Assembly: GCA_022848865.1 (NCBI GenBank)
Contig: JAJISE010000011.1
Coordinates: forward strand, 1-44,925
From: Candidatus Thermoplasmatota archaeon
GTDB lineage: Archaea > Thermoplasmatota > Thermoplasmata > RBG-16-68-12 > JAGMCJ01
Reading direction: 5' to 3'
Length of the DNA: 44,925 nucleotides
Below are positions 5,830-16,406 of this stretch, piece by piece. The translations under genes were made by a program, and so were the position numbers. Each line of letters starts with the position of its first letter. The first letter of the stretch is position 1. The notes below the pieces were generated by a model. The model was given only the letters and a program-made list of their open reading frames with translations, was not told the origin of the DNA and ran no database searches.

Positions 5830-6768
5830 CTAGGCGATCCCCGCCAATCCGAGAAGCTTCTCCGCCGCCGAGTGCGGGTCCATCTCCTTCTTGGTGATCA
5901 TCTGGACCAGGTTGTTGAACTCCCCGATGAGCTCGGGCCTTTCGAGAACTCTCAAGAACAGGTGCTGCGACAGCGCCGCACGGAGCTCTTCCTTCGCCCG
6001 CTCGACACGCTCGGTTTCCAGCGTCCCGCTCTCCTTGAGGAAGTCGTAGTGCTCCTCGATCAGGTCCGCGAGGTCCGTTATGCCCTTGTCCTCCGTCGCC
6101 ACGGTCAGCTGCATCCTCGGTTTCCACCCGCTCGGCTTCTCCCGCTCGACCACAAGGCTGAGGTTCGCCAAGGTGCTGTCCACACCGTCCAGGTCCGCCT
6201 TGTTCACGACGAAGATGTCGCCTATCTCGAGGATGCCTGCCTTCATGGCCTGGATGTCGTCTCCAAGGCCCGGCATCTCCACGACGATCGACGTGTGCGC
6301 TATCCTCGCGATGTCGACCTCCGACTGGCCCGCACCGGCGGTCTCCGCGAAGATTATCTGCATGCCCATGGCGTCGAGCACCTTGATCACGTCCGCGGTC
6401 GCCCTCGACGTCCCGCCCGCGTGCCCGCGAGTGCCCATGCTCCTGATGAACACGCCCTCGTCGAGGGTCAGGTTCCCCATCCGTATCCGGTCCCCGAGCA
6501 GCGCGCCGCCCGTGAACGGGGACGTGGGGTCGATGGCGATGATGCCCACCTTCTTGTCCCGCTTCCTGAACTCCTTGGCCAGAGCGAAGACGAGCGTGCT
6601 CTTCCCCGTCCCCGTCGGACCAGTGATCCCGATGATGTGGGCCTTTCCCGTGTGAGGGTAGATCGCCCCGAGGACCTCGGCCGCCTTCTTGTCATAGTCC
6701 TCCAGAAGCGATATCGCCTTTGCCGCCGCCCTCTTGTCACCTCTGAGCAGGCGCTCGACTAGCTCCAT
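5830..6768 (-). CDS. meaB: MeaB/ArgK-type GTPase, chaperone of the B12-dependent acyl-CoA mutase
   Basis: This 312-residue G3E-family P-loop GTPase has a Walker A at residues 50-58 (GPTGTGKST), followed by the Switch/Walker B region (IIAIDPTSPFTGGALLGDRIRM), the MeaB-typical FIRSMGTRGHAGG, ETAGAGQSEVDI and the guanine-specificity motif VNKADLDG. MeaB proteins gate adenosylcobalamin loading and protect or reactivate the mutase. The older name LAO/AO transport ATPase is misleading. Its ATG directly follows the stop of the B12-binding subunit gene without a gap. The operon order is large subunit, B12 subunit, MeaB, so co-expression with the mutase is near certain. Confidence 0.93.
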   Translation of the reverse strand: MELVERLLRGDKRAAAKAISLLEDYDKKAAEVLGAIYPHTGKAHIIGITGPTGTGKSTLVFALAKEFRKRDKKVGIIAIDPTSPFTGGALLGDRIRMGNLTLDEGVFIRSMGTRGHAGGTSRATADVIKVLDAMGMQIIFAETAGAGQSEVDIARIAHTSIVVEMPGLGDDIQAMKAGILEIGDIFVVNKADLDGVDSTLANLSLVVEREKPSGWKPRMQLTVATEDKGITDLADLIEEHYDFLKESGTLETERVERAKEELRAALSQHLFLRVLERPELIGEFNNLVQMITKKEMDPHSAAEKLLGLAGIA

Positions 6769-7161
6769 CTACTTCCCCGCGATCTTCCTGTGGAAATCCA
6801 CGATATCTCGGAGCGGCGTCCCTGGACCGAAGACCGCCGCGATCCCCATCTCCTTCAGCTTGGTGACGTCCTCGTCCGGTATTATCCCACCGCACGTCAC
6901 GACGATGTCGTCGATCCCCTTCTCCTTGAGGATGTCCATCACGGTCTTGAAAAGCGTCATATGGGCGCCGGAGAGGCAGCTCATTCCGATGGCATCGACA
7001 TCCTCCTGGATGGCGGCCTCGACGATCTGCTCCGGCGTCTGGTGCAGGCCCGTGTAGATGACCTCCACGCCCGAATCCCTGAGCGCGCGGGCCACGACCT
7101 TCGCGCCTCTATCATGACCGTCCAACCCTGGTTTTGCGACCAAGACTCTCAATTTCGTCAT
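6769..7161 (-). CDS. B12-binding small subunit of acyl-CoA mutase
   Basis: This free-standing 130-residue cobalamin-binding domain has a Rossmann-like fold and the base-off/His-on signature DxHxxG at residues 14-19 (DGHDRG, His16 as lower cobalt ligand), followed by [20 protein letters not shown] and [11 protein letters not shown]. In many archaea the mutase is split into a catalytic alpha subunit and this small subunit, as here. It lies 9 bases downstream of the large subunit and abuts meaB. The domain itself does not tell methylmalonyl-CoA mutase from isobutyryl-CoA mutase; that choice rests on the large subunit. Confidence 0.95.
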
Positions 7162-7170
7162 TGATATTCC

Positions 7171-8850
7171 TCAATAGATGATTGGTTCCGTGTACTCCCC
7201 GAACACCTCTCTGAGCACGCCGCAGGTCTCCCCGAGCGTGGCATGGGCCTTCACGCAGTCGAGTATGAAGGGCATCACGTTCTCCTCGCCCTCCGCCGCC
7301 CTGCGCAGCCTGTCGAGGCTCCTCTCGGTCTCCTTCTGGTCCCTCTCTTTCTTGAGCCTGTTGAGCCTGTCCAGATGCTTCCTCTCGCCCTCCGGGTCCA
7401 TGTCGACGAGCGCGATCTCGATGGGCTTCTCCTCCGCGTACTCGTTGACGCCGACTATGATTCTCTCCTTGTCGTCCGTCTCCTTCTGGTAGCGGTACGC
7501 CGCGAGCGCGATCTCCTTCTGGAAGAACCCCTTCTTGAGGGCCGGTATGACCCCTCCCAGATTCTCGATCTTGTCGAAGTACTCGTAGGACTCCTCCTCC
7601 ATCCTGTCCGTGAGGTACTCGACGAAGTAGGAGCCGCCGAGCGGATCTATCGTGTTGGCGACGCCGCTCTCGTGCGCGATTATCTGCTGCGTTCTTAGGG
7701 CGATCTTCACGGCCTTCGCCGAGGGCACCGCGTAGGCCTCGTCCATGGAGTTCGTGTGGAGCGATTGCGTCCCGCCGAGGACGGCGGCGATGGCCTGGAT
7801 GGCCACCCTGACGATGTTGTTCTCCGGCTGCTGGGCGGTGAGCGAGCACCCGGCGGTCTGCGTGTGGAACCTCATCCACCAGGACCTGGGGTTCTTGGCG
7901 CCGAAGGTCTCCTTCATCTCCCTCGCCCATATGCGCCTCGCGGCCCTGTACTTCGCGATCTCCTCGAAGAGGTCGTTGTGAGCGTTGAAGAAGAAGGACA
8001 GGCGGGGAGCGAAATCGTCCACGTCCAGCCCTCGCTCCTTCGCCGCGCGCACGTACTCGAAACCGTCCGCCAGCGTGAAGGCGAGCTCCTGCACGGCAGT
8101 CGAGCCGGCCTCGCGGATGTGATAGCCGCTGATGGAGACGGTGTTCCAGAGCGGGACCTCCTTGGAGCCGAACTCGAACGTGTCCACGATGAGCCTCATG
8201 GACGGCTCCGGCGGGAAGATGTAGGACTTCTGGGCGATGTACTCCTTGAGGATGTCGTTCTGTATAGTCCCCCTGATCCTCGTGGACGGGATGCCCTGCC
8301 TCTCGGCCGCCGCGATGTACATCGCCCAAACCACCGGGGCGGGGCCGTTGATGGTCATGGACGTGCTTATCTCGTCCAGCGGGATTCCGCCGAAGAGGAT
8401 CTCCATGTCCTTTAGCGAGCTTATCGCGACGCCGCACTTGCCGAACTCCCCCCTCGCCATCGTGTGGTCGGTGTCATAACCGTACAGCGTGGGGAAGTCG
8501 AAGGCGACGCTCAGTCCCGTCTCCCCGTGCTCGAGGAGGTACTTGTACCTCGCGTTCGTCTCCTCCGCGGTCCCGAAGCCCGAGAACATCCTCATCGTCC
8601 ACAGCTTGCTCCTGTAGAGCGTCGGGTGGACGCCCCTCGTGAAGGGGTACTCGCCCGGCAGACCGAGCTTCTTGAAGTAGTCGAAATCCGGAGTGTCGTC
8701 CGGAGTGTAGAGCCTGTCGATGGGGGCACTGGACGTCGTTGTGAAGGCCTTCCTTCTCTCCGGAAGGGCGTCGAGCGACCTCTTCAGGGTCGAGCCTTCC
8801 CAATCCCTTTTGCTCTTCGCTATCTCCTTGATGTCGCCCTCTTCAGACAT
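7171..8850 (-). CDS. Acyl-CoA mutase large subunit, isobutyryl-CoA mutase-like active site
   Basis: The 559-residue TIM-barrel catalytic subunit belongs to the methylmalonyl-CoA mutase family ([57 protein letters not shown]). Aligned by hand to the Propionibacterium mutase as I recall it, the carboxylate-binding Tyr89 and Arg207 of methylmalonyl-CoA mutase are replaced by Phe89 (in WTMRMFSGF) and Gln207 (in KEYIAQKSY). In the literature this Phe/Gln pair marks isobutyryl-CoA mutase, which interconverts isobutyryl-CoA and n-butyryl-CoA. The conserved His of GYH, which contacts B12 and substrate, is kept. The gene heads the operon with the B12 subunit and MeaB. A family-level call is certain and substrate specificity is inferred. 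Start ATG is at 8850 with a TATA-like element upstream. Confidence 0.93.
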
Positions 8851-12065: not shown

Positions 12066-15000
12066 TCACAGTCTGGAGAAGTCCCTCGTCTCGTCCTTCG
12101 GCGGCCTTTCCCGCCGCTCGGGCTGCGGCTTCGGTCTCAGCACGGCAGCCTTCCGCAACGGCTCCTGGCAGTACGGGCACAACTCCTCATCCTTCGTGCA
12201 TGCGGCGCACAAGTACTCGCCGCAGTCGTGCTTCATGACCGCCTTCCCGTTGTGCATCCCGCAGTGTTTTCCCTCGAGGGGACCCTTCTTGGCGGGAGGC
12301 TTCGCCGCTTTCGTGGTGGGCATTGCCGCTTTGGCGGGCATCTTTGGAGCGCCACCGTGGTAGTCCTCGCCCATCAGCGACTTCACTCTCACGACCTCCG
12401 GTGGACCCTCGTCCGGTGCGAACTCCTTCAGCGACGCCTCCAGCCTCTTCGCCTTGTAGATCCCGATGTTGAAGTGCCTGACGAGTGCCAGTACCGTCCT
12501 CTTCTCCGGCGGGAGGTCAAGCGTCTGCCTCAGCAGGGAATCGAGCTCCTGGTCGTATCTCGGCTCGACCCTCATCCTGTCCACGGTCTCGATGTAGCTG
12601 AGGATCTTCTTCGACCTCTCGACGTCGTACTGCGGGAAGCTGGCGGTGATGTCGCAGAGCCTTAGGCCATACCTGCCACCGCTCTCGATGCAGCTCCTCA
12701 GGACGGGGATCGACGCCCGTTCCATGTCCTCCAGCTCGGCCGATGTCATCTTCGCAATGTCGATGGTCTCTCTCTCGCGGAGGTGGCCGATGACCTCGCC
12801 CAGGTAGTCGAACGGTATGTTCAGGTCGCGGAAAGCCTCCTCTTTCGTGATGGCCCTTCCGTTCTGGAACTCGAACTCCAGAACCCTCTTCCCATACTCG
12901 CTCAGCTGTCTCTTCCTCTTCCTATCCTCGCATATCTTCTTCGCCTCGATGGAGGGCTCGTAGTTGGGATCTATCGCCAGAGTGCTCTCGAATGCTCTCA
13001 CGGCGCTCTCGAACCTTCCCTGATGCATCAGCGCGAGCCCCTTGCTGTTCCAAGGGACCTTGTCCTTCGGGTCGAGACCGATCGCCCTGTCGTAGGCCGC
13101 GATCGCCTCCTCCCAGTTGTTCATCTTCTCGAGGGCCAGTCCCATGAGCTGCCAGATGCTCTTGTCCTCCTCGTTGATCTCGGAGGCCCTCTCGTACGAG
13201 TTCAGCGCCAGCTCGTAGTTCCTCGTCTTCGCCGCGAGGAGCCCCCTCTCCTTCCAGGCTGCGAAGCTGTGATAGTCGATCTCGATGGCCCTTTCGTAGC
13301 TTCCATCCGCATCCTCGAACCTCTTCATCTTCTCGAGTATCCTTCCTCTCTCAAGCCACACCGTCGGGTTGTCGTCCCTTATCCTGAGCGCGCCGTTGAC
13401 CGCCTCGAGGGCATCTGGATACCTGTTCTGCTCCGCGAGGATCCTGCCCTTCGTCACAAGGGCTTCGAGGTTCTTCGCCTCCTTCGTCAGTATGTCATCC
13501 ACAACGGCCAGGCCCTCGTCGAACCTCTGCAGCTTGGAGAGCGTCAGGGCCTTTCGGTTCAGCAGCGCCGTGTTGTCCCGGTCCATGGTCAGGGCGTCCT
13601 CGTAGGCCTTGAGGGCCCTCTCGAACTTCTCCAGGCCGAAGAAGATCTCGCCCCTCTTCGCGAATGCGTGGGAGTTGCCCGGATCTATCTCAAGGACCTT
13701 GTCGAAGCTCTGGATCGCCCCCTCGTAGTTCCTCATCGTCAGGAGCGCGTCGCCTCTCATGTTCCACGTGTGCTTGTCCATAGTGTCCAGCGATACGGCC
13801 TGGTCGAAGCTCTTCAGGGCCTCCCCGTACTTGCCCATCTTGGCCAATGAGTGCCCCCTCGCCCTGATAGAATCCAGATGGTTGGGCTGCATCTGGAGTA
13901 TGTAGTTGCACGTCTCGATAACGCCTTCGTAGTCGCCCGTCCGTTCAAGAACGTCCTTCTTCACCTGCAGCAGTCTCAGGTCCTTCGGGTCCATGGATAT
14001 GGCGGACTCTATGGCGTTGAGGGCGTCATCGTTCCATCCCAGGTTCTTCGCCGCCAGGGCCTTCTCGTAGTACCCCTCGATGCTTCCGTAGTCGATAGTG
14101 GTCATCAGGTCCGCGGCCTCGTAGGTTCCTTTCCATTCGCCCAGCCTCTTGAATATGTCCTTCCTGGCTCTGGCGGTCTCGAGGTCGTTCGGGTCTATCT
14201 CGAGTGCCCTCTCGTAGGAGCCGAGCGCCTCCTTGTCCCTTCCGAGCTTGACGAGGGCGTCGGCCATCCTCACGTGCGCGAGCTTGTTCGAGGGGTCGAA
14301 CTCGATCACCTTCTCGAAGCTGGCGCGGGCGTCATCGTACCGCTCGAGCGATGAAAGCGTCAGACCCTTGCTGTACCACACGTGCTTGTCCTTCGGGTCC
14401 AGCTTGAGCGCCCTGTCGTACGCGACGAGGGCCTCCTCGTAGTTCTTCAGACCTTCCAATGCCAGACCCTTGCTGTACCATGTGACCCTGTCCGTTGCGT
14501 CGAGTTGAATCGCCCTCTGCAAGCTGTCCAGCGACTGCTCGAAGCGACCGAGCCTCCCCAGCGCCTGGCCCCGGTTCTTCCAGGCCTTCGCGTCCTTGGG
14601 GTTTATCTCCACAGCCTTGTCGTAGGCCGAGACCGCCTTCTCGCGGTCCTTCATCCTCTCGTATATGGCCGCTTTCTCCATCCAAGCCGAGTAGTCCTCC
14701 GGGCTCAGCCCGAGAGCCCGGTCGAGGGACGTCAGCGCCTCCACGGGTCGCGAAAGGGCGCTCAGAGCCATTCCCCTGTCCTTCCACGTCTCAGCGTCAT
14801 CGGGATCGAGCCCGGTTATGGCGTCCGCGCACGCAACGATCTCCTCTCTTGCGCGCAGCCTCTTGAGGACGGTGAGCTTCTTCCTGAGGACCTCGAGGTC
14901 CCTCGGGCTCATCTCGAGGGCGATGTCGAACGCATTCTTCGCCTCCCGCAGATCGTCCAGCTCCAGGAGGGCCACGCCCTTGTGAAAGAGCGCCTCCTTG

Positions 15001-16247
15001 TTCGAAGGGTCCGATCTGATGATGTAGTCGCAGACGTTCGCGACCTCTCTCCAGTCCTCCAGCTTGATCAGCGCCTCCTTCTTGCCCGTGAGGGCCTCGA
15101 CGCTCTCCGCGTTGATCCTCAGGACGCCGTTGTAGGCGCTCACGGCCTCCTTGTGCTTTCCCAGGTTCATGTAGGCGTTTCCCATGTCCAGGTAGGCCTC
15201 CTGATCCTTCGGGTCCAGTTCGACGATCGACTCGCCAACGCTCACGACCTCCTCCCATCTCTTCATCACCGTGAAGGCGGCTTTTTTCCCCCTGAGCGCC
15301 TCGAGGGATTTCGCGTCTATGGCGAGGGCCTCGTCGAAGGCTCTGACCGCAGCCTCGTGCTCCTCGAGCTCCATGAGTATCCTCGCTTTCAAGAGGTGGC
15401 TCTCCCCGTCCCTCGGGTCGTACGTGATGGCCTTTTCAAAGGATCCGAGGGCCTCGTCCCTCTTCCCAAGTTCGTGAAGAATCCTTCCCTTCCGCTTCCA
15501 CAGGGTAGTGTTCTCATAGTCCAGTTCCAGACACTTCTCCAGGGAGAAGAGGGCGTCCTCTTTCTTGCCGAGGTTCTCCAGCGCCTCCGCCTTCTTCAGC
15601 CACATGTCCTTGTCCGAGGGCTCGAGTCTCAGCCCCTCGTCAAAGGTCCTGACGGACTCCTCGTACTGGCTCAGCCTGAAGTAGGCCATCCCCTTCCTCT
15701 TCCACAGGCTCCCGTCCTCCGGACGGATGCTGAGGAGCTTCGTGTAAGTGGGGATGTCGGTGTCATCAATCTTCAGGACCTCGAAGAAGCAGTTCTCGGC
15801 ATCCTGCGTGTCCCCAAGGTCAACGAGGACATCGCCCTTGTTCGACCACACATCCTTTCTGGCGGGGGCCAGGTTCAGCGCCTTGTCATAAAGCCCGAGA
15901 GCCTCCTCGGCCTCCCCTCCATGGTAGAGCATGAGCCCCTTGTGGTTGAGCGCGTCTATGTTGTTCGGGTCCAGCTGGAGAGCATAGTCGATGTGTCCGT
16001 TCGCCTCTGTGTCCCTGCCTATCTCGTGGAAGCCATACCCAAGCTCGTCGTACACGTCCGAGAAGTCGGTCGTCAGCTTCGATATGAGCTCCCGGTTCTT
16101 CTCAAGGGTCTGGGACGCCTTGGCGAAGTAGACGTAGGCGGCATCTCTGGAACCCTTCTGGACACACTCCTTGCCTCTCTTGATGTTCTTCGAGGCCTTG
16201 CCTAAAGTCCTTTTCTCCTTGTCGAAGAGGGAATCCAGAAACCCCAT
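12066..16247 (-). CDS. Giant TPR-array protein with C-terminal zinc-ribbon-like domain
   Basis: The 1393-residue protein is mostly about thirty tandem tetratricopeptide repeats of 34 residues (residues about 55-1130), recognisable by repeats of the form A-(Y/F)-x2-A-L-x-(L/I)-D-P-x-(D/N) and W-x-x-(K/R)-G. They form a long superhelical protein-binding scaffold. A helical domain of about 160 residues follows (residues about 1135-1300, with winged-helix-like segments). The C-terminus carries a Cys/His cluster (HCGMH, HDCGEYLCAAC, ELCPYC) resembling a zinc ribbon or B-box. There is no signal peptide or membrane segment, so it is likely cytoplasmic. ATG at 16247 is preferred over 16268 because GGTGGAAGG precedes it and a TATA element (about 16281-16292) would be too close to 16268. 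Partners are unknown. Confidence 0.9.
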   Translation of the reverse strand: MGFLDSLFDKEKRTLGKASKNIKRGKECVQKGSRDAAYVYFAKASQTLEKNRELISKLTTDFSDVYDELGYGFHEIGRDTEANGHIDYALQLDPNNIDALNHKGLMLYHGGEAEEALGLYDKALNLAPARKDVWSNKGDVLVDLGDTQDAENCFFEVLKIDDTDIPTYTKLLSIRPEDGSLWKRKGMAYFRLSQYEESVRTFDEGLRLEPSDKDMWLKKAEALENLGKKEDALFSLEKCLELDYENTTLWKRKGRILHELGKRDEALGSFEKAITYDPRDGESHLLKARILMELEEHEAAVRAFDEALAIDAKSLEALRGKKAAFTVMKRWEEVVSVGESIVELDPKDQEAYLDMGNAYMNLGKHKEAVSAYNGVLRINAESVEALTGKKEALIKLEDWREVANVCDYIIRSDPSNKEALFHKGVALLELDDLREAKNAFDIALEMSPRDLEVLRKKLTVLKRLRAREEIVACADAITGLDPDDAETWKDRGMALSALSRPVEALTSLDRALGLSPEDYSAWMEKAAIYERMKDREKAVSAYDKAVEINPKDAKAWKNRGQALGRLGRFEQSLDSLQRAIQLDATDRVTWYSKGLALEGLKNYEEALVAYDRALKLDPKDKHVWYSKGLTLSSLERYDDARASFEKVIEFDPSNKLAHVRMADALVKLGRDKEALGSYERALEIDPNDLETARARKDIFKRLGEWKGTYEAADLMTTIDYGSIEGYYEKALAAKNLGWNDDALNAIESAISMDPKDLRLLQVKKDVLERTGDYEGVIETCNYILQMQPNHLDSIRARGHSLAKMGKYGEALKSFDQAVSLDTMDKHTWNMRGDALLTMRNYEGAIQSFDKVLEIDPGNSHAFAKRGEIFFGLEKFERALKAYEDALTMDRDNTALLNRKALTLSKLQRFDEGLAVVDDILTKEAKNLEALVTKGRILAEQNRYPDALEAVNGALRIRDDNPTVWLERGRILEKMKRFEDADGSYERAIEIDYHSFAAWKERGLLAAKTRNYELALNSYERASEINEEDKSIWQLMGLALEKMNNWEEAIAAYDRAIGLDPKDKVPWNSKGLALMHQGRFESAVRAFESTLAIDPNYEPSIEAKKICEDRKRKRQLSEYGKRVLEFEFQNGRAITKEEAFRDLNIPFDYLGEVIGHLRERETIDIAKMTSAELEDMERASIPVLRSCIESGGRYGLRLCDITASFPQYDVERSKKILSYIETVDRMRVEPRYDQELDSLLRQTLDLPPEKRTVLALVRHFNIGIYKAKRLEASLKEFAPDEGPPEVVRVKSLMGEDYHGGAPKMPAKAAMPTTKAAKPPAKKGPLEGKHCGMHNGKAVMKHDCGEYLCAACTKDEELCPYCQEPLRKAAVLRPKPQPERRERPPKDETRDFSRL

Positions 16248-16406
16248 GCCCTTCCACCCGAACGTCAATGGATGGCGGTCGATTTATAATCTTCGGACAA
16301 CCAGCGCTGCTGGAGAGCGGGTCCCGGGACGGATGCGCGACCCTTCGAGTCGCACGGAAACGGTCTAGCGTGCGATCAACGTCCCTTGGTGGGAAGAGGG
16401 GAACGT

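What the first reader, a model, noticed from the sequence alone, without database searches (positions are those of the whole stretch)
7171..8850. Acyl-CoA mutase carries the isobutyryl-CoA mutase residue pair, not that of methylmalonyl-CoA mutase
The protein would be annotated by default as methylmalonyl-CoA mutase. Lining it up with the Propionibacterium enzyme gives the same numbering: the Tyr89 position is Phe (codon 8584-8586) and the Arg207 position is Gln (codon 8230-8232). Those two residues bind the carboxylate in methylmalonyl-CoA mutase, and isobutyryl-CoA mutases have Phe and Gln there. With a short-chain acyl-CoA dehydrogenase 2 kb away and MeaB in the operon, the genes suggest a valine-derived isobutyryl-CoA to butyryl-CoA to crotonyl-CoA route in an archaeon.
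Basis: partly seen in the sequence, partly recalled or inferred. Interest (0 to 1): 0.78.

Follow-up and report, generated by a model that had tools for sequence, protein, structure and literature searches.

The report
Archaeal isobutyryl-CoA mutase with shared subunit
This archaeon carries, beside an ordinary methylmalonyl-CoA mutase, a second vitamin-B12 enzyme whose active-site residues, family tree and genomic company all say it rearranges isobutyryl-CoA (from valine) to butyryl-CoA, an enzyme tested biochemically only in bacteria as far as I know, and both enzymes seem to share one B12-carrying subunit.

Summary
The 559-aa mutase large subunit (7171-8850, minus) has Phe89 (8584-8586) and Gln207 (8230-8232), the isobutyryl-CoA mutase (ICM) pair. 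Its operon adds a B12-binding subunit and MeaB. The genome holds a separate canonical mutase (61% identical, Tyr/Arg) followed by methylmalonyl-CoA epimerase, biotin ligase and propionyl-CoA carboxylase. No F/R or Y/Q hybrids occur among 164 mutases; in a tree built without those two columns the Tyr/Arg enzymes form one clade (95/96) that excludes this protein. A co-occurrence test in the class agrees: 18 of 18 typed genomes with a Tyr/Arg copy have an epimerase over cut-off, 0 of 51 Phe/Gln-only genomes do; all 67 Phe/Gln genomes have acyl-CoA dehydrogenase, the 6 Tyr/Arg-only genomes none. Function as an ICM is therefore likely but untested; pivalyl/isovaleryl-CoA cannot be excluded. It is not unique: Phe/Gln mutases run through Thermoplasmatota, Asgard archaea, haloarchaea and Chloroflexota, and a Cuniculiplasma small subunit is already named ICM. 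New here: outside family f6, genomes of this order with both large subunits have a single B12 subunit, next to the Phe/Gln gene, implying one subunit serves two mutases.

The parts
7171..8850 (-). Acyl-CoA mutase large (substrate-binding) subunit, 559 aa, ICM-type
   Evidence: TIGR00641 783.8 bits, PF01642 746.7 bits; AlphaFold model pTM 0.86, best PDB match 4R3U (HCM) TM 0.89
8584..8586 (-). Codon of Phe89 (Tyr in methylmalonyl-CoA mutase)
   Evidence: alignment with 1REQ/2XIJ/4R3U; invariant F89 in A1 and A2
8230..8232 (-). Codon of Gln207 (Arg in methylmalonyl-CoA mutase)
   Evidence: alignment; invariant Q207 in A1 and A2
8119..8124 (-). Codons of Tyr243-His244 (catalytic His244 kept)
   Evidence: invariant Y243 and H244 in A1 and A2
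6769..7161 (-). B12-binding small subunit, 130 aa, with the DxHxxG cobalamin motif (LDGHDRG)
   Evidence: TIGR00640 180.9 bits, PF02310; the only TIGR00640 match in the genome
5830..6768 (-). MeaB-type GTPase chaperone, 312 aa, directly after the small subunit
   Evidence: TIGR00750 353.5 bits over cut-off, PF03308
10889..12034 (+). Short-chain-type acyl-CoA dehydrogenase, 381 aa (proposed next step, butyryl-CoA to crotonyl-CoA)
   Evidence: Pfam acyl-CoA dehydrogenase N, M and C domains; best NCBIfam hit acryloyl-CoA reductase 501 bits, under its cut-off; same place at 91% identity in the sister genome

Best explanation
The operon 5830-8850 encodes an unfused, two-subunit, adenosylcobalamin-dependent isobutyryl-CoA mutase with its MeaB chaperone. 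The large subunit binds the CoA ester; Phe89 and Gln207 replace the Tyr and Arg that hold the carboxylate of methylmalonyl-CoA, so it takes a substrate without that carboxylate. The small subunit carries B12, and a 5'-deoxyadenosyl radical drives migration of the thioester group to interconvert isobutyryl-CoA and n-butyryl-CoA. The likely net flow is valine to isobutyryl-CoA (2-oxoacid:ferredoxin oxidoreductase) to butyryl-CoA to crotonyl-CoA (acyl-CoA dehydrogenase plus ETF) to acetyl-CoA. Shown by sequence: gene layout, residues, phylogeny, co-occurrence, presence of the downstream enzymes. Inferred: substrate, direction, source of isobutyryl-CoA. Further inference: the same small subunit (and perhaps MeaB) also serves the genome's Tyr/Arg methylmalonyl-CoA mutase, which has no small subunit of its own.
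For: Residue pair by alignment to structures, invariant in relatives. No hybrid pairs among 164 mutases. Tree without columns 89 and 207: Tyr/Arg enzymes, human and Propionibacterium MCM included, form one clade 95/96; this protein lies outside with the Phe/Gln enzymes. Fused IcmF rows are also Phe/Gln. Own genome has a separate Y/R mutase with epimerase, BirA and PCC. Class-wide: epimerase in 18/18 genomes with Y/R and 0/51 with F/Q only, Fisher 5.8e-17 by genome and 3e-5 by family; acyl-CoA dehydrogenase in 67/67 F/Q genomes and 0/6 Y/R-only. Archaeal loci where the F/Q mutase, B12 subunit and MeaB form one operon with acyl-CoA dehydrogenase (L081, L082) or stand beside dehydrogenase, acyl-CoA synthetase and ETF (L076, L104, L111). 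Same neighbours beside bacterial IcmF. Beta-oxidation enzymes in the genome. Shared subunit. Specificity role of the two sites and their use in annotation: PMC7238569, citing Jost 2015.
Against: No biochemical activity for any archaeal Phe/Gln mutase was found. Best PDB match by sequence and by fold is 2-hydroxyisobutyryl-CoA mutase, not IcmF. Residue 88 is Met and 90 Ser instead of the Gln and Ala of MCM, so the pocket is not identical to the tested ones. In some bacterial loci Phe/Gln mutases stand near epimerase-like or carboxylase genes (L123, L124, L144, L151). No 2-oxoacid oxidoreductase could be assigned as isobutyryl-CoA-forming. The dehydrogenase in the window is on the opposite strand with two genes between.
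Confidence: 0.8

Rival explanations
1. It is a methylmalonyl-CoA mutase in spite of the Phe/Gln pair, working in propionyl-CoA metabolism.
For: Family models name it so; overall 61% identity to the genome's own Y/R mutase; some bacterial Phe/Gln loci lie near epimerase-like or carboxylase genes.
Against: Both carboxylate-binding residues are replaced; no epimerase over cut-off in any of 51 Phe/Gln-only genomes; a canonical Y/R mutase sits with the epimerase and carboxylase in this genome; tree separates the two.
Confidence: 0.04
2. It is a mutase for another acyl-CoA without the second carboxylate: isovaleryl/pivalyl-CoA (IcmF also acts on these), 2-hydroxyisobutyryl/3-hydroxybutyryl-CoA, or an unknown branched acyl-CoA.
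For: Closest solved structure is HCM; IcmF with the same pair also turns over pivalyl- and isovaleryl-CoA (PMC10481361); Met88 and Ser90 differ from the usual Gln and Ala.
Against: HCM has Ile at 89, and its sister row Val, not Phe; close association with short-chain-type acyl-CoA dehydrogenase, ETF and 3-hydroxybutyryl-CoA dehydrogenase fits butyryl-CoA best.
Confidence: 0.12
3. It is an isobutyryl-CoA mutase that runs mainly from butyryl-CoA to isobutyryl-CoA, feeding synthesis rather than valine breakdown.
For: The reaction is an interconversion; Streptomyces uses ICM to supply polyketide units (PMC2847961).
Against: Archaeal relatives sit with acyl-CoA dehydrogenase, ETF and acyl-CoA synthetase, a degradative set.
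Confidence: 0.1

Closest known systems
Two-subunit isobutyryl-CoA mutase (IcmA/IcmB of Streptomyces cinnamonensis; Slip_0757-0760 of strain TGB-C1)
   Same: Unfused large and B12 subunits with MeaB-like protein; linked to beta-oxidation. The TGB-C1 cluster has large, small, adenosyltransferase and MeaB-like genes (PMC5017805).
   Different: Archaeal; Met88 and Ser90 in the Phe89 loop; no adenosyltransferase in the operon; small subunit apparently shared with a methylmalonyl-CoA mutase. The Streptomyces and TGB-C1 sequences themselves were not aligned here.
IcmF, fused isobutyryl-CoA mutase
   Same: Phe/Gln pair (L198, L199); acyl-CoA dehydrogenase and 3-hydroxybutyryl-CoA dehydrogenase next door.
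   Different: Not fused here: B12 domain, GTPase and mutase domain are three genes; 36-38% identity only.
2-hydroxyisobutyryl-CoA mutase HcmA (PDB 4R3U; Methylibium RPME01)
   Same: Separate large subunit, Gln at 207, highest identity (47%) and TM-score 0.89 among solved structures.
   Different: Ile at 89 instead of Phe; different clade.
Isobutyryl-CoA mutase subunit B of Cuniculiplasma divulgatum (CSP5_0925)
   Same: A Thermoplasmata archaeon with this annotation, protein detected by mass spectrometry (PMC7285479).
   Different: Annotation only; residues, substrate and partner are not discussed in the passages read.
Methylmalonyl-CoA mutase (1REQ, human 2XIJ; own genome C10:49290-50849)
   Same: Same fold and AdoCbl machinery, 61% identity to the own-genome paralogue.
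   Different: Tyr89/Arg207 against Phe/Gln; epimerase and carboxylase linkage against acyl-CoA dehydrogenase linkage.

Membership tests
Isobutyryl-CoA mutase | Phe and Gln at the two substrate-determining sites | tested here: met
   F89 and Q207
Isobutyryl-CoA mutase | AdoCbl radical machinery: B12 subunit with DxHxxG motif, His244, MeaB partner | tested here: met
   LDGHDRG in 6769-7161; H244 invariant; MeaB over cut-off
Isobutyryl-CoA mutase | Lies outside the methylmalonyl-CoA mutase clade | tested here: met
   Tyr/Arg clade 95/96 excludes it with columns 89 and 207 removed
Isobutyryl-CoA mutase | Groups with biochemically tested ICM large subunits | tested here: inconclusive
   Only IcmF relatives, as a distant outgroup, and HCM were in the tree; Streptomyces IcmA was not obtained; the Phe/Gln group is paraphyletic when rooted on IcmF
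Isobutyryl-CoA mutase | Interconverts isobutyryl-CoA and n-butyryl-CoA | not testable with these tools
   needs purified enzyme
Methylmalonyl-CoA mutase | Tyr89 and Arg207 | tested here: not met
   Phe and Gln
Methylmalonyl-CoA mutase | Goes with methylmalonyl-CoA epimerase | tested here: not met
   0 of 51 Phe/Gln-only genomes have one over cut-off; in this genome the epimerase is beside the Y/R copy
IcmF | Single fused B12-GTPase-mutase polypeptide | tested here: not met
   three separate genes; NF045497 far under its 1500-bit cut-off
2-hydroxyisobutyryl-CoA mutase | Small aliphatic residue (Ile) at position 89 with Gln at 207 | tested here: not met
   Phe at 89; 4R3U and Methylibium HcmA have Ile

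The most novel reading that the evidence does not exclude
One B12-binding small subunit (with one MeaB operon) serves two large subunits of different specificity in the same cell, an isobutyryl-CoA mutase and a methylmalonyl-CoA mutase; and, if the root on IcmF is right, the Phe/Gln enzyme is the older state from which the Tyr/Arg methylmalonyl-CoA mutases arose once.
Probability: 0.4. Interest if true: 0.65.

Novelty: new member of a known kind. Interest (0 to 1): 0.52.

Why it matters
A large set of genes in uncultured archaea and Chloroflexota, read by default as methylmalonyl-CoA mutase, most likely does a different reaction and links valine breakdown to beta-oxidation. Two residues plus one genome-content test (epimerase or acyl-CoA dehydrogenase) separate them. 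Wrong labels give wrong pathway reconstructions, such as propionate routes in archaea that lack the epimerase. The shared small subunit would be a new way for one B12 carrier to feed two mutases.

Tried and rejected
Jost 2015 (PMC4646380), the structural paper on the two sites, is not held; the site rule is taken from PMC7238569 and own knowledge. Papers on an archaeal isobutyryl-CoA mutase with biochemistry: none found, which is no proof of absence because most subscription journals are missing. Assigning a 2-ketoisovalerate oxidoreductase: three PorA-like alpha subunits score best as pyruvate synthase and under every cut-off, inconclusive. Thiolase hits beside the mutase in f2, f4, f5 and f6 genomes are only about 30% identical to the query thiolase and may be mevalonate-pathway genes, so they were not counted as support. 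The genome-contig scan used patterns that contain the Phe, so its all-Phe/Gln result was not used as evidence of frequency. First tree kept the diagnostic columns; repeated without them.

Full report
WHAT IS THERE. The window is contig C11 of a 2.03-Mb, 136-contig genome, 95.8% complete. A sister genome in the same genus has a 96%-identical copy in a record named 'Thermoplasmata archaeon isolate RS_9_17' (L096; G004), so the organism is a member of the Thermoplasmata. On the minus strand lie, in order of transcription, the mutase large subunit (8850-7171), a B12-binding small subunit (7161-6769) and MeaB (6768-5830), with gaps of 9 and 0 bases.

RESIDUES. phmmer alignments to solved structures place residue 89 (Phe) opposite Tyr89 of the Propionibacterium enzyme and residue 207 (Gln) opposite Arg207. 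HCM (4R3U) has Ile and Gln, human and Propionibacterium MCM have Tyr and Arg, and two IcmF proteins from plasmids have Phe and Gln. That two sites mark specificity in this family is stated in PMC7238569 (citing Jost and others 2015, not held here); the atomic roles rest on general knowledge. Phe89 ends a strand (85-89) of the predicted barrel and Gln207 follows helix 200-206; the model's best PDB match is 4R3U, TM 0.89.

IS IT MORE THAN CHANCE. Among 164 distinct mutase rows there are 135 F/Q, 25 Y/R, 2 I/Q, 1 V/Q, 1 V/V and no F/R or Y/Q hybrid. In the order (37 genomes, found by whole-protein similarity) every copy of 65% identity or more whose two sites could be read is F/Q and every other typed copy is Y/R. 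In a careful tree of 54 proteins with columns 89 and 207 removed, all 14 Y/R proteins form one side of a branch (95/96) and the window protein lies among the F/Q ones; the four states need only three changes, the minimum. The bootstrap had not fully settled and two long Y/R branches meet, but 94% of bootstrap trees keep the Y/R set together.

THE OWN GENOME HAS BOTH. The second mutase (C10:49290-50849, 61% identical) is Y/R. It is directly followed by an epimerase (145.8 bits, cut-off 114.95), and then, named from the reading frames, a biotin ligase, a propionyl-CoA carboxylase beta subunit, a biotin carboxylase and a biotin carrier. So the methylmalonyl-CoA route is complete without the window enzyme.

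AN INDEPENDENT TEST. If F/Q enzymes made succinyl-CoA, genomes with only F/Q copies should need the epimerase. I searched 250 genomes of the class for mutases, epimerase and acyl-CoA dehydrogenase, and read the residue pair in 69 genomes that enter the test. All 18 genomes with a Y/R copy have an epimerase over the cut-off; none of 51 F/Q-only genomes has (5.8e-17 by genome; 7 families against 11, 3e-5, f20 having one genome on each side). Every one of 67 F/Q genomes has acyl-CoA dehydrogenase; the six Y/R-only genomes (family f19) have none. In f15 the F/Q copy stands alone and the Y/R copy is next to the epimerase. Genomes are related and a few are incomplete, so the family-level figure is the honest one. 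Three F/Q-only genomes (G050, G074, G190) hold an extra mutase fragment that was not typed, and f14 genomes a 30%-identical distant relative.

NEIGHBOURS. Among 76 F/Q loci of at least 9 kb an acyl-CoA dehydrogenase lies within 8 kb in 26 (no matched background was computed). In the Thermoplasmata loci L076, L104 and L111 the mutase operon stands beside dehydrogenase, acyl-CoA synthetase and ETF; L076 and L111 add 3-hydroxybutyryl-CoA dehydrogenase. In L081 and L082 dehydrogenase, B12 subunit, MeaB and mutase form one operon. Haloarchaeal F/Q mutases on plasmids lie beside acyl-CoA dehydrogenase or dehydrogenase, 3-hydroxybutyryl-CoA dehydrogenase and thiolase. IcmF loci show the same company. 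The own genome has three acyl-CoA dehydrogenases, an ETF alpha beside one of them (named by eye and used as a query), and a 3-hydroxybutyryl-CoA dehydrogenase next to a short-chain enoyl-CoA hydratase, plus five 2-oxoacid:ferredoxin oxidoreductase alpha subunits, none assignable to 2-ketoisovalerate.

A SHARED SMALL SUBUNIT. In 29 genomes of the order outside family f6 there is exactly one TIGR00640 B12 subunit over the cut-off, next to the F/Q large subunit wherever both coordinates are listed; at least 19 of these genomes clearly also hold a Y/R large subunit, which lies with the epimerase. In f6 a second small subunit accompanies a third, more distant Y/R mutase (L055, L056). In f19, where only Y/R exists, small subunit and MeaB sit in the Y/R operon (L084). 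An Anaerolinea locus has Y/R mutase, epimerase, F/Q mutase, B12 subunit and MeaB in tandem (L152). The simplest reading is that one B12 subunit, perhaps with one MeaB, serves both large subunits. This is inference from gene counts; an unrecognised second small subunit is not excluded, and in this genome the Y/R gene is cut at the contig end.

HOW IT COMPARES. It works like, and probably is, a two-subunit isobutyryl-CoA mutase. A 2010 review states that ICM is known only from bacteria (PMC2847961), but in 2020 a Cuniculiplasma protein was listed as isobutyryl-CoA mutase subunit B in a proteome (PMC7285479), and a two-gene ICM cluster with MeaB-like and adenosyltransferase genes was proposed for the isobutyrate-isomerising bacterium TGB-C1 (PMC5017805). 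So the class of enzyme is known; the archaeal breadth, the clean epimerase/dehydrogenase split and the shared subunit are the new parts. Novelty is judged only against the papers held here.

VERDICT. Observation confirmed, interpretation supported at about 0.8. Interest is moderate: a firm, useful re-annotation with a testable twist, not a new kind of enzyme.

Noticed in passing
window 6769-7161; whole order: One B12 small subunit per genome in 29 non-f6 genomes of the order, at least 19 of them clearly with two mutase large subunits (F/Q and Y/R); it lies next to the F/Q gene.
   Followed up: partly
L152:5863-11214: Anaerolinea tandem: Y/R mutase, epimerase, F/Q mutase, B12 subunit, MeaB in one direction.
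   Followed up: partly
L055, L056 (family f6 genomes): A third mutase, about 49% identical, with Tyr/Arg in an odd context (RQYSGF, YIGRGTW) and its own B12 subunit; substrate unknown.
   Followed up: no
window 8587-8589 (Met88): The residue before Phe89 is Met in 87 of 135 F/Q rows and 2 of 25 Y/R rows, Gln in most others; it may shape the pocket.
   Followed up: no
tree: Rooted on IcmF, the F/Q mutases are paraphyletic and all Y/R methylmalonyl-CoA mutases arise once inside them; the root rests on a long branch.
   Followed up: partly
L194 and L202 (plasmids of Sinorhizobium medicae and Sphingobium): Mutases with Val/Gln and Val/Val at the two sites, beside MeaB genes; specificity not obvious.
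   Followed up: no
L259-L262 (family f14 genomes): Mutase-like proteins about 30% identical to the window protein, of unknown kind.
   Followed up: no
window 12066-16268: A 1400-aa ORF made of many tetratricopeptide-like repeats on the strand facing the acyl-CoA dehydrogenase (read by eye only).
   Followed up: no
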